A stretch of DNA of 64,000 nt from Phorcus lineatus. Its lineage: Eukaryota; Mollusca; Gastropoda; Trochida; Trochidae. A program made the position numbers and the translations under genes. The notes under the pieces are model-generated. The model searched no databases, was not told the origin of the DNA, and worked only from the letters and a program-made list of their open reading frames with translations. This document shows, in pieces, positions 29,107 to 61,960 of this stretch (positions within the stretch are counted from its first letter, which is position 1; each line of letters starts with the position of its first letter). The stretch spans positions 24,121,158 through 24,185,157 of the forward strand of contig OV121081.1 of assembly GCA_921293015.1 (NCBI GenBank), in the 5' to 3' direction.

Positions 29107-29780
29107 TTTATATTCTAAAGACTATATACTTTTGGATGCATCAAATAACACCAAATTATCCGTGGTTGCTTCCTTGATATTCCACACAACCATTGGCGAG
29201 GAACATGATCACTTTTGTTTTTTGTTGTCATAAACACGTCTTATTCTGGGATGAACCCAACACATCAAAGCGCGTGAATTGGTGCCTTTTTGCAATTTCC
29301 TATCATCAAGATCACTTTAGTTTGGTTTGAGAGTGTTTTCACCACTATTCTTTTGGATGCACTCAACAACACCAAGCTTGTTCTTGGCTGCCTTCTTATC
29401 ATTCACAATCACTGAAGACGATCGTAGCTACTATAGTTTCTTGTGATGGTGATCTCAACACTATTCGTTTGGATGCACCTAACACCGCCAAGCTTGATCG
29501 CGATTATAACAACACAGTCTATTTTGTGACTGATCTTAACATTATTCTCCTTGAAGGATCCAACATCAACAAGCGTCACCATTGCTGCCTCCTTCAGAAT
29601 CCCAATCATTTAAAACGATTATAATCACTATAGTTTGTTTTGAGAGTGTTCTAAGCCATATTTTCAACCGCTAAGCTTTTAAAGCTCTTACTTGTCATTG
29701 AAGATGATCATAACCTATAGTTTGTCTTGAAACTATTCTCACCACTACTCGTTTTCGTATGAGGTCCAGAGTCAACATTC
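29107..29780. repeat. Degenerate tandem repeats over the transporter stop codon and 3' flank
   Basis: About six diverged units of 80-120 bp. Recurring pieces include 'tagtttgttttgagagtgtt', 'caccactattc', 'ttggatgca' and 'caacaccaagcttg'. The last unit overlaps the final ~70 nt of exon 11, so the transporter C-terminus appears to derive partly from a repeat unit. Spacing is irregular and boundaries are approximate. Confidence 0.55.
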
Positions 29781-30069
29781 TCCTCGATAGAAAACACAGG
29801 GTTATCAATACCAACCTCAGTCACATAAGACTTGGATGTGCTTTCATCCTTGTCAATGTCAAAATCTTTAGGAGGCTTGTACATAACTAATGCAAGAAAG
29901 AAGAAAAGTGTGGAGAAGGCTTTGATGACCATCCCGACTGACATCAGGTAGTAACTCATGTTCTGGTTGTCGTAAAAAAAACAAGACCCATTTCCGTCAC
30001 AGCGTTGCTGCCACAGTAGGCAGGACAAGTCAATCATCTTCCCGAATATTATGGGGCCAGGGATTGCTC
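29708..30069 (-). CDS. SLCO4A1-like: SLCO4A1-like terminal coding exon 11
   Basis: 362 nt including the TGA. Reads GPIIFGKMIDLSCLLWQ, a cysteine-flanked loop, the last membrane segment (FSTLFFFLALVMYKPP) and a ~50-residue acidic Ser/Thr-rich cytoplasmic tail ending in NYRL. The last ~70 nt of coding sequence resemble the degenerate repeats found downstream of the stop. Confidence 0.95.
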
Positions 30070-33000
30070 CTGAAATAGACAAATAATGGATTATTTTGCA
30101 GATTTAACTTTACAGACATCTTAAAGTTTAAAAATATTCAAGATATATATCATTTCATAAAGATTTTCTAGTTGATATTCTCTTATAGCAAGTTATTAGG
30201 TAAAGGAGGGATGTTAAACCTACCTAGACACCTGACGACCAGCCACTGGATCCCCATTGCAAAGGAACGTTGGTCACCTGGAACACACCTGTGGAACAGA
30301 AAAATGCATAAATTGACATGTATAGTTTAGCTTTAACTGAATACGAAGACAGATAATTATCAACAGATGATTGTGATTGAGGAAATTTAACACCAGAGTG
30401 ACAGTCAGATTTGCATAAACCATCAACGGATGACTAAGTAAGGACTGCGAGTGAGGGCATGAATTTACTTCACTGTGATTGTGAGCTAGGGCATTATTTA
30501 CCCGAGTGAGACTGAGTGAGGGCATGTATTTACTTCCCTGTGGTTGTGAGCGAGGGCATTATTTACCTGAGTGTGACTGTGAGTGAGGGCATGTATTTAC
30601 TTCACTGTTGTTGTGAGCGAGGGCATTATTTACCTGAGTGTGACTATGAGTGAGGGCATGTATTTACTTCACTGTGGTTGTGAGCGAGGGCATTATTTAC
30701 ATGAGTGTGACTGTGAGTGAGGGCATGTATTTACTTCACTGTGGTTGTGAGCGAGGGCATTATTTACCTGAGTGTGACTGTGAGTGAGGGAATGCCAAGA
30801 AGAAAAGTGAGGAACATTATGATGGCGAAGACAGGCAGGAACAAAGGAAGCCACGGACAGGGACTCTCACAGGTGGTTAACTCGGCCATGTAGTCTGTGG
30901 CGTTGGTCATCACACAGGAACAGTTCATAAATCTCTGGAATATTAAAAAAAATATTACAAGTCATGGCAAAAACAGTTGACGGAATCGGTTATGAATGAT
31001 AATTTAACATGAGCATGACAAATCTGAGGCATAACATTACCGTGACTTCCCCAGTCTGCTGTTCCTGACAACCAGCATAACAGGGGGAGAAGTACATGAC
31101 TCCGTCCCGGCCACACACTGGTCTGTAGTCCTCCTCAACACAACCACATCCGGAGTTGCACCCAGAGTCCAGCTGCTTTTCAATGTATCCCACAGATCTG
31201 TGACAACAGAAATGTGCCGATGTCCTGATTTACATTATTTGAGAGAAGTCATGTCTTACAGTTGATTGATATTTGATAGCTTTATTAAGACATAAAAATA
31301 TACATGACTCGAGAATTATGGCTAACTTTCTCTTTGACTCTACGAAAACCTTGATGAAGAATTACAAATGTATTGATTTTTTTAATTAACAAAATTCATA
31401 AATGACGGATGAATATTCAATGTTTAAGCATTCAAAATCAACTAGCAATCAACATAAACCATTGTGAAATGCGTTCGTAATAGGAAATTAAAAGTCAAGA
31501 AGTCAAATGCACAAATGTTAGACATATTGTATTTTTTCGAATTTACCGAGTCACTCACAGAGGGCTAGACTGGTTTTGGTAATCCACGTTGATGCCGGCA
31601 AAGGGGACGTTGTCACAGTGGACTAGGAAAATAAAAGCCAGGATCATAACCGTCGCCGAGGAAGCGATGCAGAACTTGAGTATCCCCGGTACCTTGAGGT
31701 TGAAGCGTTTCACCAGGTACCCTCCTAAAAAGGTACCTCCGCCCCCTGCGGGGATAGCTGCGAGTCCTTAACGGAGAGATACAAAGAGTCTGCATTATAC
31801 AAATCAGTTACTCAGACATTGGCGTACGATTGTGTGGTTGTCTTCAAGTAACAGCGATTTCATTATATAACATATTGTTATGTTGCCTATGAAAGATAAT
31901 TCTTTTAAAGTGCACAAATTATCAGTATTAAATTAAAAAGCATTACCCGTGAAAAGTGAAAAGCATAAAATCGGACTTCGAAAAATCGAAAAAATAAAAT
32001 ATCCCAAATAAAATGTCATTTATATAATGATGTTATATATTCAAAGTATATAACCTAAGATCTTAACTCTCAGTTTATAAACAAGGTGAAAATATCGTCT
32101 CGACAAAAGCATTAATCCCATGCGAACAGGTTGAGAAGGATACATTACATTGTACACTAATTACAGTTATTACCGAAATTTATTTCATAATGGTGTCTAC
32201 TTACCGACATATTGGGCGGCTCTAGATGCGGGTATGCTGAACTGATACTCAAGAAACTTGGGCATGAAGGCCGAGAAGCCCCCAACTACCATAGCTACAA
32301 CACAAACAACACGTACCTCAGTATATAACTGTACTCAGGTGTACTGTAATTACCATTTTACACCTAGCGGCGCTCTGGTGTCAAGCTGCCAGTTTGTTTT
32401 ATATAATAGCCTCAACACAAGTATCAAGAAACATACGGGCTATTAGAATTTGCATTACAAAGAATGGTTTTGTTTCAGCTGTTCTTGTAGAACTGAAGAT
32501 GAAGTGCACGTTGTGATATTCCGCTCCGTTAATTATTATAAAAGACAAGGGAACTTTTGAGGCCTGCAAACTGAAATTACATGATTACAATTTTTTTTTT
32601 AAATATGTATCTTATCAAACTGTGCAATGTTGTTCCGTACAAATCATTGCTTTTTTTTAAAAAGAGAGGAAAAAAATCAGTCTGTCTGTCTTGACGGTTT
32701 ATGTAAGTTGTATATTATCGGAAACTATGTTTTTGGCAGAGTAGAAATTTGTGATATGCACTGACTCTGGCAATAATAAACTTTTAATAATGATACCAAT
32801 AGAAACACGTAAGGTAATATTTATGTAATCGGGAGTTTCTGGTTGTAAGAACACACTTGTCAGACTAGTAAATTATACCTTGTTTCTCTTGTAACAGGCA
32901 TCGTTGTATAATATGCTCTGTCTAGACGTTAGGTTTAGTCAAGACTCGTCACAATGTACACAGACGACACACATTGATACAGTCACAACTATTTAAGACA

Positions 33001-36000: not shown

Positions 36001-39000
36001 AACTTATAAGGTTTTCAGGTTTACATGAATTGAGTATTACATGTCGTTTACCAAAAAAATACAACAGATCGATTCATCAAACTGTAAAAACCAAAATTTA
36101 TTTTTATTTGGGTTTGTATCTTACGACCTTAATTAAACGTTAAAATACATTAGCAGAAGATATTGATATAAAAGGTGCGCTCGATGTAAAAGTATTACTA
36201 TGTATTAAACAATTTTAATCCTTGGGACGCTGTGTGGTTTTGGATATGGTTTTAAAAAATAAACGACATCTTCCCCCGCATGGCTTTAAATTGACAACAA
36301 GAACAAACAGGTCAGAACAACCAAAATCAACATTGCAATTGAGCAATAGAATAAGAGTTTTGCAGTGCTAGAAACCCAAGTTAGGAATTCATTTTCTTTT
36401 CGCCCTACGTGGAATAATGAAAGGAGGTCGTTGTTTCTTGGTCGTATCAAATAACTTGCTATAATTGTACCCAAACTGTGCCATCTATCTCGTTACACTA
36501 CGGGAAACAGCACATGATCTGACCAAGCCGTCAAGTAAACATTTTTCAGGATTGACCTCAACATCTGATTGGTTTGATGATTTTAGATTCGACAAATGCA
36601 GTACGCCTTTCGAAGGACAATGCTTTGAAAATCTTTACAAAAAGGGTCTTGAATAACTTTTAGATTGAACTACATGCCCGATTTAAGTAACGGTCTGTCG
36701 TCACTCAAAAAAGAGGGGGAAAGTCGCCGACAAGTTGATAAGAATGATATATCAAAAACTGGCATTTGTTATCGCGCTTGGTCCAATCTTGCTACGTTGT
36801 ATTGCGTAATGAAAGATATTATTTTAATGAGATTTATTGTGACATTGACATGGCGGACCACTCACCATTGTACAGCGGAGATGACCTTAGCGGCAGATTC
36901 TCGTCAAGGTAGGTGACCCCAAGTGTGTAGAAGGGCGTGGCCCCAGCTCCATGCAGTAGCTGGGCCAATATAAACACGTATTTGTAACTAGAGATCCCTC
37001 CGTTACTCGACCCCTCACTCCCACAGGTGTTGGTGTTGTTGTTGGCGATGTCGCACACGGTGTCACGGGCCACGTCGAATGTGTACAGGTCGGTGGTGAA
37101 GTGGGGCAGGGCGAAGAGGAAAGACCCCAGTCCAAGCGTGAACACTCCGGCAGCTACATACCTTGGTTTGATGCCGTAGCCACCGAAATAACTTACAGGA
37201 AGTAAACATATCGCCGAGGCAATGTCGTAACCGCTGACGATGGTGCCACTTTCAGTGCTGCTGATTTGAAAGCGTCGTTCTATCGTTGAGAGGATGACGT
37301 TGACTACACCGCTGACCACGAACCCCTGTTGAACACAGATTTCATTAGACCTGTCATACTTACACTAATGAAATGTTATGTGATTTTGGAGCTGATTCAT
37401 TGCTTCTGTGAACACAATTTTACACTGAAATTTACCATGAAACGTTCAAGCAGTGCATGAAAAAAGTTTGACTGACCATAAAACTTGGTTTTCATTCACA
37501 TTACGTACTGGCCCTTACATAAATTGGGAGGGTCTCGATTGGTACCGATCAAGATATATGGAACCCCTTAATTAACGCCTACCTAAATGCCTTCCTGTAC
37601 AGCAATAAACCAATTGCTGTATTGTACCAAACATACATCATATAGCAAGTGTAAAGACTCAATAGTCGGTAATTGTTTATCCCCGTTTGTGTAATTTCTT
37701 AACAATTAGCGGAGAGACTCAATCGATCCTGTATAAAATTGCAGTCTAATATCCGGTCTCTAAGAACGTTGATGAAAAAATTGTATTTAAATTTCTGAGG
37801 TAACGATATTTTTTATTTATAACATTTTTTGCTAATGATAACACCATCTTATATCTTTCTGGACAAGTAATCTGCGGGCTTGGAACCAACACTCTCAGAG
37901 ACAGATCACCATTGCAAGCTTTCCCAACAGCTTACCAGCTCAGCCACCAAGACTTTGGCAAAATTAATTATTTGAACGTTAACAAGCTGGTAAAATTCTG
38001 TCAAATAGTCATCATTTTCTTGTTTTTACTTCAACTCTGCCAATGTCGATGACGCCAATTATCATCGATAAATTCAGTGCCACCATTAAGTGTTGTGGCA
38101 ATATTCAGCTATACAGACCTATCCAATAATTCCCATGCGTTTCTAATGGTAAAACGTGTCTCTTAACTGGTGACATTTACCATTTCTAATAAGGGGCCGT
38201 GGATAAACTTCTACATATATTATCATGAATTAATAATAATCACAATTCAACTAGACTCTTTTCATATGACACGGAAAACCCGAAGGTAATGAAAACTGTC
38301 AGCTAAACCACCACGAACCTTTACCCAAACAAATGTTATTTTCATAAAAACTTTAATCCATAGTAATCCTTAAAACTTGCTCGGGGAATGTCTCTTTCAA
38401 ATAAACAATATTTTAATAAGTGTTTTGTGAACCTTCCCAAAACAATTTCAAAGAAATTTAAATCCTTGTTAATCCTGAACACTAACGACCCGGTCCTCTT
38501 GATGTGACTCACTAATGACACCCGAGGCGAGATATAGATATATGAATCTGCATGTATATCTACATCTAGTCCGGGTCCAGGTGACCTTTCCCCAGGCTTC
38601 GTAATCTTTGACCTCTCTAACATCACAGGTAAAACGTCTACCGCCAAAACAAATATCAGATCTTTAAACTGCGTCAACGGCGGCGGTTTTATAAAGAAAA
38701 CATATTTTTGGATTAACTCTTTAACAGCAGCTAACCGAAGTATGTCTGAAGGACATTTCTAGCTGAAAACAAGCGACTAGACAGTAATCATAGTCTTTCA
38801 TGCTATGATCAACAATGCTTGATGTGGATTACAACTTCAGATATTGAAATTCCCTATTCATCCATTATTTTTGCACGCTGCTATACCATGATGTCTTTGT
38901 AATTGGTCCACTTGTCTAAAAGATTTTAAGAAAAATATTTGTAGTTATTATATATATACGTTTGATGGTCATGCATGGATTTGTAGTTATTATATATATA

Positions 39001-44434: not shown

Positions 44435-44740
44435 GTGAGGTGAGTGAGATGAGTTGGTGTTCAACGCCGCTTTCAAGATTATTTCACTTATATCGCGGCT
44501 GCTAGTATTATTGCAGGGAGAAAGCCCGCAACACCATTGTGGCTATGCGTTGCGGTGAAACCTGCGAGCATCGGCTGGAACTAGCGAACCATGGGTGATT
44601 CTGCGCTGAAATTCAGTGTAGCATTGCACCCAAACCTGACTGCGTGTAGAACAGTTCTCTACTGCAGACAAAGTTGCCGAGCCCCTGGCGGGATTTGATC
44701 CGAAGCCGAACGCGCTAACCACTGCGCTATCCCGCCTCCG
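44435..44740 (-). mobile_element. S1 tRNA-SINE with B-box deletion
   Basis: Flanked by 'gtatgtataag' and 'gtacgtataag' (44424-44434, 44741-44751; one mismatch). The head joins 'ggcgggatt' to 'gatccgaagccg', so about 17 bp including the B box are missing. This copy could no longer be transcribed from its own promoter. Confidence 0.92.
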
Positions 44741-46551: not shown

Positions 46552-46932
46552 GGGGGCGAGATAGCGCAGTGGTTAGCACGTTCGGCTTCGGATCAATAGG
46601 TCTGTGGTTCGAATGGATAACGCAGTGGTTAGCGCGTTCGGCTTCAGATCAGGAGGTCCGTGGTTCGAGCCCGTTCGAATCCCGCCAGGGGCTCTGCAAC
46701 TTTGTGTGCAGTAGAGAACTGTTCTACACGCAGTCAGGTTTGGGTGCAATGCTACACTGAATTTCAGCGCAGTACCACCCATGGTTCGCTAGTTCCAGCC
46801 GATGCTCGCAGGTTTCACCGCAATGAATAGCCACAATGGTGTTGCGGGCTTTCTCCCTCCAATAATGCTAGCAGCCGCAATATAAGTGAAATAATCTTGA
46901 AAGCGGCGTTAAACCCCAACTCAATCACTCAC
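46552..46932 (+). mobile_element. S1 tRNA-SINE with duplicated tRNA head
   Basis: Flanked by the perfect 12-bp duplication 'tataacatagca' (46540-46551, 46933-46944). The tRNA-like head occurs twice in tandem ('gcagtggttagcacgttcgg' near 46566, 'gcagtggttagcgcgttcgg' near 46622), each with its own A box and B-box sequence, before one S1 body and tail. Confidence 0.92.
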
Positions 46933-49597: not shown

Positions 49598-49666
49598 TTA
49601 TTTCTTGTTCTCTGCCTCCTGGTGCTTGAGCTGAGTGATCTTCTTCTTATGTCTTTCAATGGCATC
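49598..49666 (-). CDS. ATP5IF1: IF1 terminal coding exon 7
   Basis: Reads DAIERHKKKITQLKHQEAEN, KK and TAA. IERHK aligns with the bovine segment containing His70. Acceptor TTGCAG, phase 0. Confidence 0.95.
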   Translation of the reverse strand, partial: DAIERHKKKITQLKHQEAENKK

Positions 49667-52600
49667 CTGCAACATAACATCAGGTTGTTTAGATAGATCG
49701 TAAATTTTTCTCCAAGGGTGGTAAAAATTCATTTATATAATGATATATTTTTGGGGAATCAAGTGATCAAATTTACTCTTCTCAATTAATGTATCATGAT
49801 CTTTGATTGGCTAACGTCATTCATGTAGGTTTCCATTTGTATTAATTTATTCTAATCTACTAGTCTTAATGAATTTCTAATTTCAATTATCTTAAATATC
49901 AAACTTTAATTAAATGCTAAGTTTCCAAGAAATAGATAGGTTAAATTTATTAATAGATGACTTATGTGCAAGAAACGTGAATACTGTTTACCATAAATGC
50001 AGGGTTAAAGATAACATGCTGTTTTTTATTTCGAAAACTCAATAATTTTAGGATTGAGTCGGCTTTAAACATGCCAGAGTAGGATATCAGAGTAAATGTA
50101 CAATAGATACAGTTGATAGAGGTACAACAATTCACAACATCTAATACAATGTGATATAAAATAAATGGGTTAAAGAGAGAAATAAGTTGGCTCTAAGAGT
50201 TGATCGGAAATAGGTGAATAAAGAGTTTAATAAACAACATTTACACTGTATGAGTGCAAATGTTACTATCAATAGAAATGTGAAATGTAAAAAAAAATAT
50301 GGTACATGTGATGTTATCTATTAAGTAACACCATCGTTATAGCAGCTATAATTGTAGCCAATAGCATGGCAAAGAGCAATGGATGATAAGGCTTCACACC
50401 AAAAAACATCTGCTGAAAAGCTGCCAGAAATGAAATGTGAAAACTATGTAAGTCTTGTTAAATGAAAATAGTTAAGCAAAAGATTTGAAATTTTATGGTT
50501 TAACTGTCATGACTGCATTATTATAAGAGGCTAAATAGTGACAAGCATGCTATCATCAATAGCATATTTAATTTTACAAACCTTAATAGCAGTAAATACA
50601 GTTTTTCTAAAAATAATTGGAGGTCTTGTTGGCTGGCAAGACTACTTTATATTCATCGATTCAAGAGTACCAAAACTATTCTTAAATATGACTTGGGTGA
50701 GAAATGAATAGCCACCTCAAAGCTCAGAATTACAGTTCTCATGAATTATTGTCATAGATTCCTCACAAAAGCTCAGACCTTATCCCAACAATCCACTCTC
50801 CGGACAGGTGAAACGTTATCCTTGCATCTTGTTGATTATTCTTACAATAATACCTCATGTAACTAGCATTGGTTGCATCTTTAATACAACTGACTGAGCG
50901 AAAGATTAAACCTGGGATAAAGTATGAAACCCACTGAGTGAAGGATTACTATATTGTGTCCCATATACTACCTTATGATACTTTACAACATATTATACAA
51001 CTAATATCAAATGAGACTATCATGTGATACTTTACAGTGTACAACCTATGATAACCCTGCATCGTGCCCCATATGACTACCTTGGTTAACATTACAATGT
51101 AAACCCTTAGTGTGAATGATAACCCTGCATCGTGTCCTCGTATACATGACTACCTTGTGATACATTACAATGTAATCCCTTAGTGTGAATGATAACCCTG
51201 CATCGTGTCCTATACGACTACCTTGGTTAACATTACAATGTAAACCCTTAGAGTGAATGATAACCCTGCATCGTGTCCCATATGACTACCTTGTGATACA
51301 TTACAATGTAAACCCTTAGTGTGAATGATAACCCTGCATCCTTGTCTTCATATACATGACTACCTTGTGATACATTACAATGTAAACCCTTAGTGTGAAT
51401 GATAACCCTGCATCCTTGTCTTCATATACATGACTACCTTGTGATACATTACAATGTAAACCCTGAGTGTGAATGATAACCCTGCATTGTGTCCTATACG
51501 ACTACCTTGGTTAACATTACAATGTAAACCCTTAGAGTGAATGATAACCCTGCATCAAGTCCCATATGACTACCTTTTGATACATTAAAATGTAAACCCT
51601 TAGTGTGAATGATAACCCTGCATCCTTGTTTTCATATACATGACTACCTTGTGATACATTACAATGTAAACCCTTAGTGTGAATGATAACCCTGCATCGT
51701 GTCCTCATATATATGACTACCTTGTGTTGGTTAATCTGCAGCTCGTGATGCTTCACCTCCTCCTCCAGGTGATTGTGAAGAGCCTCAATCTGGGAAGCTT
51801 GCTGGGGGACCAGACCAGACACGTTATCGTGGATAGATTACATTACAACATGCACACAACACTCACAGGGGATAAGAGATGCAGATACCAAACAATGACA
51901 ATTCTCAGTTTAACATCCATCCATTAGCTACCTCTTTTTAAAGTAAGGTGTGGGGGGAATCCCATCCCCTGCCCTCTGTAATAATATTACCTATCAATGA
52001 CTGTAAACAAGTTGATAATAGAGGAAGGATCTGATGTGCTAATAGTTTTCAGGCTAGATGTGTATCTGAGTGCTGCTGGTGTTTGGTATCTGATCAACTC
52101 ATGGAACATGCTCAGAGACAGCATGCAGGATTCTGCAGGACCCGTTCCGCTAAGTTATAAGAAAGAAAAGAAAGAGTTAGAGAAAGTGCCAGGGAAAGCA
52201 GCTATTCCTTTCATGGCCATTAAACCATACATGATACCAGTGTCAAAACTTCAACATTAGAATAGGCTGTCCCATAGATAGAACAAGTTTTTCAATGATG
52301 AAATGTCCTTTTGGGTTTTTTCAAAATACCAACGAACTACATGTTTCTTTTGGGCGAGAACAGTACAATCATTTTCCTTGAATGCCTGAAGTTGACTTCA
52401 CTGGTGATCATGTTTGATCAATGGGACATGTAACAATGTTTGAAGCATGGTTGGGTGAACGTCAAACCTTGTGCATTTTCATTTGTTTTTCGTGGAATTC
52501 AACTTCATCCTCCATCATGTCCCTCAAGTTTTCTAGTTGCTTTCCTCGCTACATCAGGTAGCAAACAGTAATGTCACAATTCATTTTAGATTATATAAAC

Positions 52601-55600
52601 ATAGAATCTTTACTTGAAATAAGCCTGAAGGCTTTTCCTCAGAGAAAGGATAACTTAATCCTGAATGCAAAATATGGAAGAGGACACATTTAACTTTATA
52701 GTTTAAAGTGATCTACTGAATGATTTTTGTATATGTCATGATAAATGAACATTACTTAGCCAAGTAGATAATGAATTAATACAAGCCAAAGCTTATCCCT
52801 GCTCCATGATTTGTGAACATGGCTAAGAGTTAGCCATTCTTAACTCTTTGGTAGAAGCATGTTGGAATAAAGCATGTGTCTCATGACATTGTCCAAATTT
52901 CAATATCAGAATGATCTGATGAGAAAATGAATAAATTCAAAATTTAAAAAATTATAGCAAATTAGTGACAGAGTCCTGCAAAAAAGCTTGTTTTTAATGA
53001 TTTTTCTCTGCAAAAGTTTTTAAAGTCATGCATGTGAAGTTGCAAAAACCTACAATCTACTTCCAACATTTGGGGTTGGGGGAAGGAAATTAAAAACTAA
53101 TTTAGGTTACCGTACTCTATGTAAAAGCTCGGGTTTTTAAACAGGGAGGAAGCAAAATATCTTCCTAATAATCTAATCTTCATGAACTTTGAAGTTAATT
53201 CACTGCAATCAAACTCCCCTGTAATATCAACATCATCGTAAGTACAAAAATCATGTTCATACTGCAAATAATAAATTCATATAGTTAATGATCATTACAA
53301 ATAATCTTATCAAACCAGGGACAAAAAGAGGAAACAAATCATTCATATGTGAACAGATACTTCTACCTCTTGAAGAAAATCCTTGACAATTAAATAAACA
53401 GTTTCCTTTCTTTTAACCATATTTCATTCCTTACTTATTGAATCAAATAAAAGTCAAAGCAATGCAAAGCAAAATTCTCCCACTGATAAAAAAAAGTAAT
53501 TTCATGTTACTAGTCAAGAGCTAGTATATACATACCAGTTTACGGAAGTACTCCTCTTCTCTTGCGGCTTCCATCTTGCCAAAGCTGCCTCCTGCCTCTC
53601 TGTTCAAACATAACTATGCTCATTTTGTATCCTCATAAAACCAATTCTCTCCCAAAACAGGCTATTCTTGTCATTTCTTTCCACAAAACCTCTGTTCTGG
53701 AGCAGGATAGTGGATTGCCACAGAATCCTGACTCAGTCTAATTAAAATTGACCCTGTTCTGAGAAATACAAGTTTTGAAAAATTGACTCTATAAATATAA
53801 CTCCTTCATATTGAGACGTATATGAAACTGTCATTTTATAACATCAAAGTATCTATTTGTGTCAGATTTACCATCCAGAACCATGTTCTTCAAAAATCAA
53901 ACTTCTTGAAAGAAAGAATATTATGTATTGGTGTAGAAGTTAATACAATTGTCAAGCAAGTTTACTCCATCAGTAATGGTGTTAGTATCTCCACTAAACA
54001 CTTCAGTTATTGCAACAAAGATGATGACTTTCAATACAACCTAAATGTTCATGAGAGACATGTTCATTGTTAAAATTGGACTGTTAATGCATTAATTTGC
54101 TCTCTCTTAATTGTGCTAGATCTCTCAATGTCAATTTAACAAAGTCACAAAGACTACCATAGTTTAAAGAATGAACAATATAAATGTAATAATGACGTTG
54201 CCATGGTTACCTCACTGATCCTCCACCACCTCCACCCTGAAAAGAAATAAATTAGAAAAATATAAGGACTTCTGTTGGTAAGCTTTCTGCAAGAAGCTTT
54301 TGAATTGGTAAGCATTGGAGAGAACTTTCGACCTTATAGTCCTGATAAGCTAAAAATGTTAAACAGCCTTGTTAACTCCTTAAATGTTCAAACACAGGTA
54401 GCTTGAGATAAGGGCCTGACAATGGGTTTAGAGCAACAGTTTTGTTTTAGTAGAAAAGACATTTTTTCTTGACTTCTTTGCAAGTTGAAAATATGTTTTG
54501 AAGTATTTAAAAATATCCAATAACGGGTTCATTTTTCGCCAACCATTCATCTTCAATAATTTTAATTGTACCATTTTACAACATGGCTGGATATAAAAGG
54601 GTAGACTCCAAATTGTAAAACCCACCTTGCCGGCACCAGAGCCCCATTCTCCACTCATGTAGCGAACTCTGCAATGTTATAAAAAATGGTATCTTAACAG
54701 ATATTTCATAAGAAATTTTTATAGATTGGAAGGGAGTGTCTTCTCCATGTAAGAAAACTAATTAATGGATTAAATCAATGAAATCTGTGATTAAGTAAAA
54801 TAGATGAATTCTAATGATAAAAAAAACTTAAGTGGCCAATTTTAATTGCTATAAGAAAGGGAATTTAGCTATTTTTGTACATAGATTGATTGGGGTTTGC
54901 TGGCCCCACGTTCACTCTTAAGATATATTTATCGCTATCAGTACAATAAAGAAGTTGATTATCCATAAAATAACTTGTCTTCCTTATACTGACAACTTCT
55001 AGAATGCCACTCAAACAGCATATATTTATCATCCAAAACTGTGTTCCACAGGAGATATCGCTTGCAGAAGATCGAACTATATGTCCTAGGAGATAAACAT
55101 GATGATGTCACAGCTAGTGCTATGTCATCAATGCACTGAGAGTCTAAGAGTAGTGCAGTGTTCAGAAATATATTTTTCACGGAATGGAAATGAAAAATGA
55201 TTTCAGATGATAAATAGAATCTCACCCTCATGTCTTCAAATATCAAACACATTGATAAAAGTAAAAATATCCATGGCAATATTCTCTATATATTTTTACT
55301 AATACACAATAATGAATTTCAATTATTCTGTTATAACTAATAGTTAATAGGAGCCTGCATGTAGTATTCTTTTTTCTTATCTTTTACACAACAATGCATT
55401 ACTAACTGCTTTTTCTCCTTTTAAAAATCAAGTCTGTGATGACATGAACAAATCTCTATCACAATTACTTCTATTATGTCAACTTTAAAAGGTTAAAACC
55501 TATAACCATACATAAGGAGAAAAAAACTTACAAAATTTAAAATTTGTTAAAATTTTCAGACTTCGTAACTATCAAATAGCATAAAATTCGTATTCACTCA

Positions 55601-56027
55601 ATTATGATCGACTTACAAGTTTTCAAAACGATTGTGAAAAATTACTTGGGAATAAATCATCTAAAACAAGATAAATGTCAGATTGAGACCTCAAACAAAT
55701 TAAAGAGCAATAATCACAACTTATTTTATTTTGTTTTCTAACATTATCACAGATAGCAGGACATATGCCATAAAAGAAATGACATCCAGCAACAAACTAA
55801 ACTTGTCCTCTGATTTCACTATTTACGACGACCTCAGATAAATTCATTTCCCTCCCACCAATTCTTCAAATTAGAGTGTCACAAAAGCTCTTAAACAAAA
55901 TATTCATAACAAACATTAAATTCGACGTTGATAGTTGTGAGGAACAATCTTCAAGTTTAGCATGAGTGTAGTAACTAATATTTTACCCAAAGAGACGCAA
56001 CGTGCTTGGTAGTCTTCGAGAGGCCAT
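49598..56027 (-). CDS. ATP5IF1: Mitochondrial ATP synthase inhibitor IF1, seven coding exons
   Basis: IF1 is a small matrix protein that blocks the F1-ATPase when the membrane potential collapses and the matrix becomes acidic. Exons: 55987-56027, 54626-54668, 54211-54236, 53536-53599, 52468-52548, 51721-51801 and 49598-49666. All introns are GT-AG and all phases close. Residues 1-18 (Arg-rich, no acidic residue) form a mitochondrial presequence. SGEWGSGAGK and a six-glycine run follow. Residues ~35-58 (SVREAGGSFGK, EEEYFRKL) form the inhibitory segment. A coiled coil ends in AIERHKKKITQLKHQ. Exons 5 and 6 are paralogues of equal length. One of them gives 107 residues, matching mammalian IF1 without gaps; both together give 134. 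I therefore infer mutually exclusive splicing. Confidence 0.95.
50314..50412 (-). CDS. Candidate alternative IF1 terminal exon encoding a membrane tail
   Basis: After the acceptor GCTTTTCAG|CAG the sequence stays open in phase 0, the phase at which exons 5 and 6 end. It encodes 32 residues and then TAA: QMFFGVKPYHP, a ~20-residue hydrophobic run (LLFAMLLATIIAAITMVLL) and NR. Spliced to exon 5 or 6 this would replace the normal C-terminus by a tail anchor. A tandem CAGCAG acceptor and AATAAA (50035-50040) are present on the same strand. Its use is unproven: it could be a chance open stretch or belong to an unrecognised transcript. I know no matching protein. Confidence 0.35.
   Translation of the reverse strand, partial: QMFFGVKPYHPLLFAMLLATIIAAITMVLLNR
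50940..51720. repeat. 68/74-bp minisatellite beginning on the IF1 exon 6 donor
   Basis: At least ten units. The marker 'actacctt' occurs at 51076, 51149, 51217, 51285, 51359, 51433, 51501, 51569, 51643 and 51716, so unit length alternates 68, 68, 74, 74 in a 284-bp higher-order pattern. Each unit holds 'gtgaatgataaccctgcatc'. On the minus strand every unit carries AAG|GTAGT, a copy of the exon 6 donor with some exon-like bases before it. Degraded units reach about 50940. Confidence 0.9.
51721..51801 (-). CDS. ATP5IF1: IF1 alternative coiled-coil exon 6 (His-rich)
   Basis: 81 nt, phase 0-0, 27 residues including QIEALHNHLEEEVKHHELQ. I chose the acceptor CCCCCAG at 51802-51803 because it has the better pyrimidine tract and makes the exon exactly as long as exon 5. 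A second in-frame AG 12 nt inside would give 23 residues. It keeps His at the bovine 48, 55 and 56 positions (Leu at 49) and so resembles the mammalian pH-sensing segment more than exon 5 does. Its donor AAG|GTAGTC is the first unit of a minisatellite. Confidence 0.92.
51802..53535. other. IF1 introns around exon 5
   Basis: Apart from exon 5 (52468-52548) I find no third copy of the duplicated exon. An 87-codon open stretch on the plus strand (51997-52260) has no recognisable domain. Confidence 0.7.
52468..52548 (-). CDS. ATP5IF1: IF1 alternative coiled-coil exon 5 (His-poor)
   Basis: 81 nt, phase 0-0, 27 residues including KQLENLRDMMEDEVEFHEKQ. Eleven of 27 positions are identical to exon 6. 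Aligned without gaps to bovine IF1 from the YFR motif, the positions of His48, His49 and His55 are Met, Met and Phe; only His56 is kept. The acceptor (GATGTAG) is weak, as expected for a regulated exon. Donor AAG|GTTTGA. Confidence 0.9.
53536..53599 (-). CDS. ATP5IF1: IF1 coding exon 4 (inhibitory core)
   Basis: Reads EAGGSFGKMEAAREEEYFR plus KL after the split Arg codon. This is the most conserved part of IF1, the helix that inserts into the catalytic interface of F1. Donor CTG|GTATGT, phase 0. Confidence 0.96.
54211..54236 (-). CDS. ATP5IF1: IF1 coding microexon 3
   Basis: A 26-nt microexon encoding GGGGGGSV and two bases of Arg. Acceptor TTTTCAG, donor GAG|GTAACC. Together with exon 4 it keeps the frame (26 + 64 = 90 nt). 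Confidence 0.9.
54626..54668 (-). CDS. ATP5IF1: IF1 coding exon 2
   Basis: Completes the split glycine and reads VRYMSGEWGSGAGK. Cleavage of the presequence is likely close to the RYM|SGE region, which would give a mature N-terminus like that of other animal IF1. Ends in phase 0 at AAG|GTGGGT. Confidence 0.92.
54669..55986. other. IF1 intron 1
   Basis: AT-rich 1.3 kb intron. A 106-codon minus-strand open stretch at 54959-55279 is hydrophobic in part but resembles no family I know. Confidence 0.7.
55987..56027 (-). CDS. ATP5IF1: IF1 coding exon 1 (presequence)
   Basis: Reads MASRRLPSTLRLF plus two bases of a glycine codon. An Arg/Ser/Leu-rich amphipathic stretch without acidic residues is typical of mitochondrial import signals. 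Donor TTGG|GTAAAA. Confidence 0.9.
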
Positions 56028-56443
56028 TTTGCTATCCAAGGTCAACGAAACAGGGGTGGGTAACTCTTGCGGCAATACCTTTTTGCGTACCAGAAAGGAT
56101 AAATCGAAATTACTTTTATTTATTCAAGAAGGATGTCACATAGAAAGGGCCAAAATTGCAATTCACTTATTATCTAATATGAAAATCTTTTTTGCTATCA
56201 AGTACAGCATTTTCCCCTGAAAACAAGTTCTCTATTGCGTAAATGCATGCATCACATTTCAAAGTAAATGCATTAAAGTACTCGATCATTCCACTTCTAA
56301 AGGGCCCCAAAAGCCTAGATTTTTTAAACGTTACGTTTTGTAATTGATACTTGACATGTTAATCTGATTATCATTATTATTTATAACAATAATATGTATA
56401 TTCATATTTCATTCATGAGTTTACGCTCAAAGCGCTACATTTA
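56028..56443. other. IF1 5' flank
   Basis: Would contain the IF1 promoter and any 5' untranslated sequence; I see no clear TATA box or initiator. 'gctcaaagcgcta' at about 56425 resembles the tail of an S2 SINE on the minus strand. Confidence 0.5.
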
Positions 56444-56913
56444 AGAGCCACTCCGTAATTTTGACAACATATTATTTACCTTTGATACGAACCTAAATGT
56501 CCTATGTGGTGATATAAAATCAAAACATCTTAACTTTTCATGTCCAAAAGACATATATATGACAAATACTGGCTTTCAATGAAAATCTTAAAACAGCCTT
56601 ATAAATGCACAGAGGTGTAGATATCACGTCCAATATACATGGATACTAATTATATAACCTAACAAACACTATCAACTCCTAACTGCCCTCCTGGCTGTTT
56701 TAGATAAGTCTCCAAAATTACGTTTGACTTTTTGACGCGCGCCACTGTCCGTTTTTCGATCATAAATGCGACGTTCTGTCTTCATATTGTCACTGTAAAA
56801 AAACAAAAAGTTTTGAAATGTGTCTTTTCTGGTTACAGTCGATACTTCGCGATCAAATGACATCAATGATTAAGTTTGGCATATATGACTCTAACAACTC
56901 ACGGAGTGGCTCT
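56444..56913. mobile_element. TTAA-type MITE, copy 1 (M1)
   Basis: Ends 'agagccactccgt' and 'acggagtggctct'. Right flank is TTAA, left flank TTTA. The 470-bp body is closely similar to the element at 61101-61521 (shared 'gcacagaggtgtagatatca' and 'gtcgatacttcgcgat'). No transposase. Confidence 0.88.
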
Positions 56914-57600: not shown

Positions 57601-58507
57601 TGAATTTACCTAAACTCTGAACTGTTATAAGCAAAATCTTAATATTTCCGATATTGTAGTTCATGCTGATTTAAAGTTACGTTGCATTAAATCCTTCCGG
57701 TCTTTAAAAATTTTACTTAGACCTTTTCTTCCTGAATACGAAAATATTTGTTAAATAACTTACGAGGTAGCTATCTCTAGAATGCCTGAGTGAGGATCTT
57801 GAATAATACCGAGAGATATGCAGTATCTGTGCATTCGTTGTGTTTACGAAATATTGGTGTGCACTAGTGCGTTTAAATCAGTGTCAAAGTAAGTCAGTTC
57901 AAAGTGAAGTCCAAGGTCTTTTGCACTCTTAGAGAATGGTATCAGGGAGTTGCATTTTGGAATTGCAGTTTCTGTGACGTACTCGAGATCTAAATGTGAC
58001 CTCCCAACAAGCAATGCCTCAGTTTCATCCTCATCTTACTTCAGCATATGAAAATTCATCCAGTTCTCTATGTATGAAGAACAGATAGAAATCCGACTGA
58101 AAAGTCCACTTGTGGCATCAAGCTTGCTAGAATCTAACAATTGAGTGTCATCGACATTCCTAAAGTATATATAGCTTTTTCGAATGATATCACAAAGATT
58201 TCCTGTACATTGAGTGAATATTACTGGTCGGAGGACCAATCCAGACCAGCAAAAACTATCAAAATGTTGATTTCGCTGATGATATGTCATTGCAGAATGT
58301 GGTCTATGGTATCAAAGGCAACCGATTATTCTAGATTTAAAAGAACAGCAATATTTCCGTTGTCCACCGAACACAGCAAATCCATGACGATTCAAGTGCT
58401 GTCTCGGTAAAAAGCTTTAGGCGATAAACAGATTGAAACTGTTCAAATTGTTTGTTATCTGCAAGAAGGGAACAGAGTCCGACCTTTACTGCCCTTTCTA
58501 GCAGTGG

Positions 58508-58881
58508 TTAGCGCGTTCGGCTTCGGATCAAGAGATCCGTGGTTCGAATCCCGCCAGGGGCTCGGCAACTTTGGTCTTCAGTAGAGAACAGTTCTACACG
58601 CAGTCAGGATTGGGTGCAACGCTGCACCGAGTTTCAGCGCAGTACCACCCATGGTTCGCTAGTTCCAGTCGATGCTCGCAGGTTTCACCGCAATGCATAG
58701 CCACAATGGTGTTGCGGGCTTTTTCCCTGCAATAATACTAGCAACCGCGATAGAAGTGAAATAATCTTGATAGCGGCGTTAAACCCCAATTCACCTCACC
58801 TCTAACACGATGCCAAAGGACGATAAGGCAAATGTGTAATCTTGAAAGCGGCGTTAAACCATAACTAACTTACTCACTCAC
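58508..58881 (+). mobile_element. S1 tRNA-SINE inserted in the LINE remnant
   Basis: Starts within the tRNA head ('ttagcgcgttcggcttcgga', B box 'ggttcgaatcc') and is flanked by 'tctagcagtgg' (58497-58507, 58882-58892). Removing it rejoins the reverse-transcriptase frame. The tail holds a second short copy of 'atcttgaaagcggcgttaaa' at about 58838. Confidence 0.9.
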
Positions 58882-61096: not shown

Positions 61097-61100
61097 TTAA

Positions 61101-61521
61101 AGAGCCACTCCGTGATTTTCATAACATATTATTTACCTTTGATACGAACTTAAATGTCATATGTGGCGATATAAAATCAAAACATCTTAACTTTTTATGT
61201 CCAAAAGACATATACATGTATATGACAAAAATCCCATCAAAATCTTAAAACAGCCTTACAAATGCACAGAGGTGTAGATATCACGTCCAATATACAAAGA
61301 TACTAGTTATATAACAAACACTATCAACTCCAATATAACGTTTGACTATTTGACGCGCGCCATTGTCTGGTTTTCGATCATAATCTACCTTCATATCGTC
61401 ACTGTAAAACAACAATAAACTTTAGAATGTGTCTTTTTGGTAACAGTCGATACTTCGCGATTAAATGACACCATTGATTAAGTTTGGCATATATGACTCA
61501 AACAACTCACGGAGTGGCTCT
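61101..61521. mobile_element. TTAA-type MITE, copy 2 (M1)
   Basis: Ends 'agagccactccgtga' and 'tcacggagtggctct', flanked by exact TTAA on both sides (61097-61100, 61522-61525). That target site is used by piggyBac-type transposases. About 50 bp shorter than copy 1. Confidence 0.9.
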
Positions 61522-61960
61522 TTAACGTCTGATTACCAATCTGTAAATACATACAGAATTGGCATTGTAGGACCATCGTTTGTAGATGACTACAAAAGTT
61601 TTAAATCTGCTTTAAATGTCGAAAAATATGTTTTCTTTAATTATTTTCGGTGAAGGACTTGTTGGGGTTGTTTTGTAAATTCAGTTGTGGTTCTCATGAA
61701 TTGAGAGTAGTTACTCGTGTATACATTACGATATATAATCCTAATGCATTGTTAAGTACAAAATGCGTTCTCGGCTCTGCATGATTGATATGCACACAGT
61801 GTGCAGACTTTTCTGTTTTATAGCAATTTGATCTACGTAGACCAAAATGTAAATAAAAGGCCCTTTTGTCAATCTCCCTATGGCTCCTATTTTCGTACTC
61901 CCAGTAAATCAGGTCAAGGCGTCCTTTCAAATTTAAGTTTCAAGTTTCTTAGCATTCGCT

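What the first reader, a model, noticed from the sequence alone, without database searches (positions are those of the whole stretch)
51721..52548. Tandem paralogous coiled-coil exons in IF1: candidate mutually exclusive splicing
Exons 5 and 6 are both 81 nt, both phase 0-0, and 11 of 27 residues are identical without gaps. Either alone gives a 107-residue IF1 that aligns without gaps to mammalian IF1; both together give 134. This is the classic layout of mutually exclusive exons. I do not know of it described for this tiny, highly conserved mitochondrial regulator.
Basis: partly seen in the sequence, partly recalled or inferred. Interest (0 to 1): 0.87.

Follow-up and report, generated by a model that had tools for sequence, protein, structure and literature searches.

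The report
Two interchangeable exons in IF1 gene
The gene for IF1, the small protein that stops the mitochondrial ATP synthase from running backwards, carries here two related exons of equal size for the same stretch of the protein, probably used one at a time to give two IF1 versions with different numbers of acid-sensing histidines; no RNA data could be checked.

Summary
The minus strand carries a seven-exon IF1 gene (Pfam IATP). Exons 5 (52468-52548) and 6 (51721-51801) are both 81 nt, phase 0-0, GT-AG bordered, with 11 of 27 residues identical. Against five outside IF1 segments they rank first and second of 23,740 open 27-mers in the window. They differ at 21 of 27 third codon positions but 21 of 54 first and second positions: an old duplication, both copies kept as protein. 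The genome search found one IF1 locus.

Used singly, each exon keeps IF1's length, frame, main F1-contact residues and coiled-coil core. Used together they lower the Pfam score and shift the heptad register by one. I think they are alternative exons, mostly exclusive (about 0.7). This is inference: no RNA was available, and the simple devices that enforce exclusion were not found.

The exons encode mature residues 38-64. Exon 6 keeps histidines 48, 55 and 56; exon 5 only 56. A splice-selected change of pH response is the boldest reading, but both exons lack His49. The donor of exon 6 recurs ten times in an adjoining minisatellite. Searches of one open-access library listed no description of such exons in IF1.

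The parts
55987..56027 (-). IF1 coding exon 1 (start codon, presequence MASRRLPSTLRLFG..)
54626..54668 (-). IF1 exon 2, 43 nt
54211..54236 (-). IF1 exon 3, 26 nt (glycine run)
53536..53599 (-). IF1 exon 4, 64 nt (inhibitory segment ..EAGGSFGKMEAAREEEYFRKL)
52468..52548 (-). Alternative exon 5, 81 nt, RGKQLENLRDMMEDEVEFHEKQMKMHK (mature residues 38-64 by the 8h9e numbering); histidines at 56 and 63
51802..52467 (-). 666-nt intron between the paired exons
51721..51801 (-). Alternative exon 6, 81 nt, QASQIEALHNHLEEEVKHHELQINQHK (same residues 38-64); histidines at 46, 48, 55, 56, 63
51048..51726 (-). Minisatellite (nine units of 68-74 nt, then degenerate ones) overlapping the last 6 nt and the donor of exon 6; ten exact copies of AAG|GTAGTC counting the exon's own
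49598..49666 (-). IF1 exon 7, 69 nt with stop (DAIERHKKKITQLKHQEAENKK); polyA-like signal 374 nt after its start

Best explanation
Exons 5 and 6 are an old tandem exon duplication in an IF1 gene that appears single-copy, kept as alternative exons for residues 38-64, with one of the two chosen per mRNA in most transcripts. SHOWN: two intact, homologous, equal-length, in-frame exons with splice borders, and protein-level conservation between them. INFERRED: the splicing choice; it would be made by regulated use of two weak donor sites, not by a forced device. INFERRED further: the choice swaps the last F1-contacting turns plus the histidine-rich pH-sensing part of the coiled coil, so that the exon 6 form (His 48, 55, 56) would respond to matrix acidification more than the exon 5 form (His 56 only).
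For: (1) Both exons rank 1 and 2 of 23,740 open 27-mers against outside IF1 segments. (2) 33 of 54 first and second codon positions are identical but only 6 of 27 third positions (Fisher p 0.0009); 7 of 11 identical residues use different codons; dN 0.55 with synonymous sites saturated. (3) Pfam IATP: 5-only 89.4 bits, 6-only 90.1, 5+6 82.3, neither 65.9. (4) The core positions 42, 45, 49, 53, 56, 60, 63, 67, 70, 74, 77 carry I, L, V, M or H in both single forms; in 5-6-7 everything after exon 5 shifts by one residue, 27 not being a multiple of 7. In a 21-residue hydrophobicity scan the same register wins in 25 of 29 windows of 5-7, 29 of 29 of 6-7, but 5 of 56 of 5-6-7. (5) Each exon keeps Q41, L/I42, L45 (F1 contacts in bovine IF1, PMC3041923 passages) and H56. 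The front half of exon 6, which in a 5-6-7 protein would sit 27 residues further from F1, matches all 5 outside segments better than that of exon 5 does (22 against 10 to 8h9e, 30 against 13 to 9b0x, 18 against 15 to 7dtl). (6) Both donors are weak (2.8 and 4.7) beside those of exons 2-4 (7.0-10.6). (7) Of 7 rows of the genome search, 5 are exons of this gene and 2 (E above 6) lie elsewhere.
Against: No RNA evidence. Joint inclusion is in frame, the intervening intron is 666 nt and every intron is GT-AG. RNA pairing is no better than in shuffles: top helix 31.0 against 29.0-41.0 in 20 shuffles. Donor 1 is also weak (3.4), the acceptors of exons 5 and 6 are not weak (5.3, 9.1; exon 4 has 0.9), and the scoring matrix was recalled and human-like, not trained on this genome. 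Exon 6 is closer overall to 4 of the 5 outside segments, so point 5 is not independent of that. Human survey: 1,399 of 6,541 candidates verified with one junction read, 855 with three (PMC5740500 passages). pH idea: the critical His49 is Met in exon 5 and Leu in exon 6; histidines may not be the only pH sensor (PMC3433140 passages). Residues whose change weakens bovine IF1 strongly are altered with either exon: R25 to Met, K39 to Gly/Ala, E40 to Lys/Ser.
Confidence: 0.7

Rival explanations
1. Both exons are always included, giving a 134-residue IF1 whose coiled coil carries an internal 27-residue repeat.
For: All borders are compatible and in frame; no device against joint inclusion was found. 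Equal-length homologous neighbours that are not mutually exclusive exist: 90 of 16,180 exons, 6 of 1,705 genes, on the fly X chromosome (PMC3228551 section 13).
Against: Lower Pfam score (82.3 against 89-90), heptad register break, and the conserved F1-contact end of exon 6 would be unused.
Confidence: 0.14
2. One exon is the working exon and the other is a rarely used or dying cassette exon.
For: Exon 5 has the weakest donor (2.8) and lower similarity to the human segment (7 of 27 identical against 10 of 27 for exon 6). The array beside exon 6 could instead disturb that exon.
Against: Both frames are intact with splice sites. Each exon keeps 4 of 7 residues invariant in the five outside segments (shuffle P 0.001 for exon 5, 0.006 for exon 6). 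The exon 5 form is the better match to 7dtl (95.0 against 88.5 bits).
Confidence: 0.12
3. Skipping of both exons, or use of array donors, is a way to lower IF1 output rather than to swap segments.
For: The neither-exon product is an 80-residue in-frame protein. Six of the nine downstream donor copies would put a stop more than 50 nt before the last junction.
Against: Does not explain protein-level conservation of two paralogous exons. No evidence that array donors are used.
Confidence: 0.04

Closest known systems
OGDH mutually exclusive exons 4a/4b (2-oxoglutarate dehydrogenase E1)
   Same: An old exon duplication in a mitochondrial energy gene whose two exons switch a sensing property (Ca2+) on or off (PMC7969005 abstract and passages).
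   Different: Different gene and signal. [quoted passage not shown] here that intron is 666 nt and the AG-free stretch before exon 6 is only 60 nt. There the switch is measured, here it is inferred.
Tandem-duplicated mutually exclusive exon pairs in general
   Same: Equal length, same phase, homology, internal neighbouring exons (criteria in PMC3228551).
   Different: The transcript criterion (exactly one exon per mRNA) could not be tested.
Mammalian IF1 (ATP5IF1) and its pH sensor
   Same: Same family, gap-free alignment over 71 residues, same main F1-contact residues and coiled-coil core.
   Different: Residues 38-64 come in two versions here. Of histidines 48, 49, 55, 56, exon 6 has 48, 55, 56 and exon 5 only 56.
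PDB 7dtl 'PSK' (organism not shown by any search)
   Same: IF1-like protein, best structure match of the exon 5 form: shares EFH at 54-56 and lacks His 48, 49 and 55.
   Different: One segment only, in a separate protein; 10 of 27 identical to exon 5 and 9 of 27 to exon 6, so the preference is slight. Its gene was not examined.

Membership tests
Mitochondrial ATPase inhibitor IF1 (Pfam PF04568 IATP) | Match above the curated cut-off (25 bits) | tested here: met
   89.4 bits (5-only) and 90.1 bits (6-only)
Mitochondrial ATPase inhibitor IF1 (Pfam PF04568 IATP) | F1-contact (group 1) residues F22, A28, E30, Y33, F34, Q41, L42, L45 of bovine IF1 | tested here: met
   All present with either exon, except conservative I42 in exon 6 (alignment; roles from PMC3041923 passages)
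Mitochondrial ATPase inhibitor IF1 (Pfam PF04568 IATP) | Strongly acting non-contact (group 2) residues A21, R25, K39, E40, A43, A44 of bovine IF1 | tested here: not met
   S21, M25; G39/A39, K40/S40, E43/E43, N44/A44 with exon 5/exon 6. I do not take these as family-defining: in 7dtl position 25 is Leu and 43-44 are Glu-Arg
Mitochondrial ATPase inhibitor IF1 (Pfam PF04568 IATP) | Mammalian pH-sensing histidines 48, 49, 55, 56, 70 | tested here: inconclusive
   H70 in exon 7; exon 6 adds H48, H55, H56; exon 5 adds H56; H49 absent from both (role from PMC3433140 passages)
Mutually exclusive exon pair | Very similar length, same phase, compatible splice sites | tested here: met
   81 and 81 nt, phase 0-0, GT-AG
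Mutually exclusive exon pair | Sequence homology of the exons | tested here: met
   11 of 27 identical, 0 of 200,000 shuffles as good; scan of 23,740 27-mers
Mutually exclusive exon pair | Every transcript has exactly one of the two exons | not testable with these tools
   No transcript data were available
Mutually exclusive exon pair | A device that enforces exclusion (too-short intron, frameshift on joint inclusion, U2/U12 mismatch) | tested here: not met
   666-nt intron, in-frame joint form, GT-AG borders throughout; U12 signals were judged by eye only. Not required by the definition
Mutually exclusive exon pair | Competing RNA pairings between introns (known for some clusters) | tested here: inconclusive
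   No helix beyond the range of 20 shuffles; no relatives for covariation

The most novel reading that the evidence does not exclude
A splice-selected pH sensor on the ATP synthase brake: with exon 6 the animal makes an IF1 with five titratable histidines in the swapped segment (His 46, 48, 55, 56, 63), whose charge can swing by five units on acidification; with exon 5 it makes an IF1 with two (His 56, 63), less responsive to pH. Tissue or oxygen state would set the ratio, and the tenfold array of exon 6's own donor site would tune exon 6 use. The two exons would then hold in one gene two IF1 types that elsewhere occur in separate proteins (a vertebrate-like one and a 7dtl-like one).
Probability: 0.2. 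Interest if true: 0.82.

Novelty: new member of a known kind. Interest (0 to 1): 0.55.

Why it matters
IF1 decides whether mitochondria burn ATP when oxygen fails, and its pH sensor is studied with engineered changes such as H49K (PMC10417293 and PMC6156145 passages). If an animal makes two natural versions of that very segment by splicing, it offers a natural experiment on what the histidine region does, and shows that a protein of about 100 residues can be tuned by exon choice as OGDH is for calcium. A tandem exon pair with an adjoining array of repeated donor sites is also a useful splicing test case.

Tried and rejected
Family search with PF04568 in the own genome found nothing (0 of 1 genome) and rang in 0 of 14 control genomes, so it is uninformative; the protein search replaced it. 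Relatives: four scans confirmed no IF1 relative in genome contigs (114 and 596 pattern stretches) or viral contigs (11 and 262). These collections are prokaryotic and viral, so this says nothing about animals; the same exon pair in related animals could not be tested.

RNA pairing: a whole-intron duplex run timed out; of eleven planned rows two were printed whole with z -0.2 and 0.6 and a third with z 0.6, and they showed nothing. A helix scan gave 52 helices over the cut against a shuffle mean of 63, top score within the shuffle range; the minisatellite was masked in the real sequence but not in the shuffles, which are thus slightly longer. The best is a 13-bp perfect inverted repeat inside intron 5, which I do not interpret.

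False duplication of the assembly: rejected, as the exons are only 39 of 81 nt identical. A processed copy that would reveal the splicing: none found (only the best candidates are scored there). Selection on the array donor: not supported; the 9-nt donor is invariant in the nine units compared, but so are other parts of the unit, with runs of up to 19 nt (the printed 49-column run is alignment padding).

The source organism of 7dtl was sought (passages of the one paper listed, use it only as a helix template) and not found. One splicing paper that names ATPIF1 once (PMC12489129, passage) only mentions it as a complex V component. A listing for fly IF1 gene names recalled by me was not followed up. 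An isoform-only alignment split exon 6 with misplaced gaps and was not used.

Full report
WHAT IS THERE. The minus strand of the window between about 49.6 and 56.0 kb holds an IF1 (mitochondrial ATPase inhibitor) gene of seven coding exons: 55987-56027, 54626-54668, 54211-54236, 53536-53599, 52468-52548, 51721-51801, 49598-49666, all six introns GT-AG. The predicted product with one of the paired exons has 107 residues and matches Pfam IATP at 89.4 (exon 5) or 90.1 bits (exon 6), cut-off 25; with both exons 82.3 bits, with neither 65.9. The window lies in a 957.8-Mb genome of 74 contigs. A protein search of it gave seven rows: five are exons of this gene, two are weak matches elsewhere (E 6.4 and 6.8). 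No second IF1 gene and no retrocopy was seen (with DNA searches of each exon, one row each, itself); only the best candidates are scored there, so a diverged copy could be missed.

IS THE PAIR REAL. Exons 5 and 6 are both 81 nt and phase 0-0, and their peptides RGKQLENLRDMMEDEVEFHEKQMKMHK and QASQIEALHNHLEEEVKHHELQINQHK share 11 of 27 residues; 0 of 200,000 shuffles reached that. To avoid circularity I scored all 23,740 stop-free 27-residue stretches in six frames of the window against five outside IF1 segments only (from PDB chains). Exon 6 (50.8) and exon 5 (37.2) came first and second; apart from a shifted overlap of exon 6 (20.6) the next had 14.8. No third copy is among the top rows.

AGE AND CONSTRAINT. 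The exons agree at 33 of 54 first and second codon positions but at 6 of 27 third positions (Fisher p 0.0009). Seven of the eleven identical residues use different codons; synonymous change is saturated and dN is 0.55. I read this as an old duplication in which both copies stayed under protein-level selection.

ONE AT A TIME OR BOTH. Four sequence arguments favour single use. First, the Pfam scores above. Second, each single form aligns without gaps over 71 residues to the mature chain 8h9e_J, human by recall; the offset of 21 puts the exons at mature residues 38-64. Third, with either exon the coiled-coil core positions (42, 45, 49, 53, 56, 60, 63, then 67, 70, 74, 77 in exon 7) all carry I, L, V, M or H, whereas 5-6-7 shifts the register by one residue. 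In a sliding hydrophobicity scan one register wins in 25 of 29 windows of 5-7, 29 of 29 of 6-7 and 5 of 56 of 5-6-7 (the core positions are recalled and extended by periodicity, not taken from a structure call). Fourth, Q41, L42 and L45 touch F1 in bovine IF1 (PMC3041923, passages). Both exons keep them (I42 in exon 6), and the front half of exon 6, which in a 5-6-7 protein would sit away from F1, matches all five outside segments better than that of exon 5. That last point is weakened because exon 6 is closer overall to four of the five.

Against single use: no transcript was available, joint inclusion is in frame, the intervening intron has 666 nt, all borders are GT-AG, and no RNA pairing beats shuffled sequence. 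Published base rates point both ways: 6 of 1,705 fly X genes have such neighbours without exclusive use (PMC3228551 section 13), but in human only 1,399 of 6,541 candidates were verified with one junction read per exon (PMC5740500 passages). I set the chance of alternative, mostly exclusive use at about 0.7.

SPLICE SIGNALS. With a recalled human-like matrix the donors of exons 5 and 6 score 2.8 and 4.7, below exons 2, 3 and 4 (10.6, 7.0, 7.9), but exon 1 is also low (3.4). Their acceptors are not weak: 5.3 and 9.1, against 0.9 for exon 4, 4.8 for exon 7, 5.2 for exon 2 and 10.6 for exon 3. Weak donors suit regulated exons but prove nothing. Exon 6 has a second usable acceptor 12 nt inside (8.2), which would drop QASQ.

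THE DONOR ARRAY. The last bases and the donor of exon 6 are the first unit of a minisatellite running to about 51048. The exact string AAG|GTAGTC occurs ten times at offsets 0 to 640, nine of them downstream of the exon. One downstream copy (+147) would extend the protein in frame; six would place a stop more than 50 nt before the last junction; +73 and +215 would give altered ends without that (computed on the 6-only form). A search of the genome with about two units gave 6 rows, all in this array (that search skips simple repeats and very common words). Since exon 5 also ends in His-Lys (CAC AAG), the exon end is probably older than the array, which would have grown from it (inference). Whether it attracts or distracts the splicing machinery is unknown.

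WHAT THE SWAP WOULD CHANGE. In mammals histidines 48, 49, 55, 56 and 70 make IF1 pH-sensitive, with His49 critical, though histidines may not be the only sensor (PMC3433140, passages; H49K in PMC10417293 and PMC6156145, passages). Exon 6 has histidines at 46, 48, 55, 56 and 63; exon 5 at 56 and 63. The segment's charge swing on full protonation is thus five against two. The exon 6 form resembles vertebrate IF1 most: 9b0x_J 93.9 bits against 83.6 for the exon 5 form. 9B0X is the brine shrimp ATP synthase, whose authors did not find the shrimp IF1 and fitted the zebrafish IF1 model (PMC12325954, passages), so I take that chain to be zebrafish sequence. The same paper finds IF1 bound at pH 7.0 and absent at pH 8.0 in the shrimp enzyme, so pH dependence is not only mammalian. 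The exon 5 form resembles 7dtl 'PSK' most: 95.0 bits against 88.5; 7dtl lacks His 48, 49 and 55, but at segment level the preference is slight (10 against 9 of 27 identical). So the two exons look like two flavours of IF1. The cautions: neither exon has His49, and R25, K39 and E40, whose change weakens bovine IF1 strongly, are altered whichever exon is used.

KNOWN OR NEW. Library searches for IF1 with mutually exclusive exons (0 papers; 3), with molluscs (0) and with splice variants (15 of 2,608 listed; 3 of 4 listed) listed no paper that by title and abstract start describes this. The library holds open-licence papers only. Four IF1 papers have no word beginning with isoform, splic or exon in the main text (PMC9317440, PMC10417293, PMC9389554, PMC6156145). 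OGDH exons 4a/4b are the nearest functional parallel (PMC7969005, abstract and passages). The finding is a new candidate member of a known kind, in a gene where I found none described. The animal was not identified; a mollusc is likely from recalled repeat types only.

Noticed in passing
window 51048-51726: Minisatellite that starts at the end of exon 6 and repeats its donor site (AAG|GTAGTC) ten times; all 6 rows of a genome search with about two units lie in this array.
   Followed up: partly
window 51790-51801: First 12 nt of exon 6: a second acceptor of similar score (8.2 against 9.1) lies after them and would give forms lacking QASQ.
   Followed up: partly
window 29708-30103 and 36834-37364, minus strand: Pieces of an OATP (organic anion transporter) gene on the same strand (six of the eight ORFs were scanned, two matched).
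   Followed up: no
window 44686-44736, minus strand: Short tRNA family match (Rfam RF00005, 33.8 bits), the only Rfam match in the window at the gathering threshold.
   Followed up: no
window about 46555-46930 and 58500-58790: Two similar tRNA-like-headed repeats, by eye SINEs of a kind recalled from molluscs.
   Followed up: no
window about 56427-56912 and 61098-61525: Two similar copies of a repeat beginning near 'agagccactccgt' (by eye).
   Followed up: no
window 52080-52092 and 51882-51894: Perfect 13-bp inverted repeat in intron 5, within the range of shuffles.
   Followed up: partly
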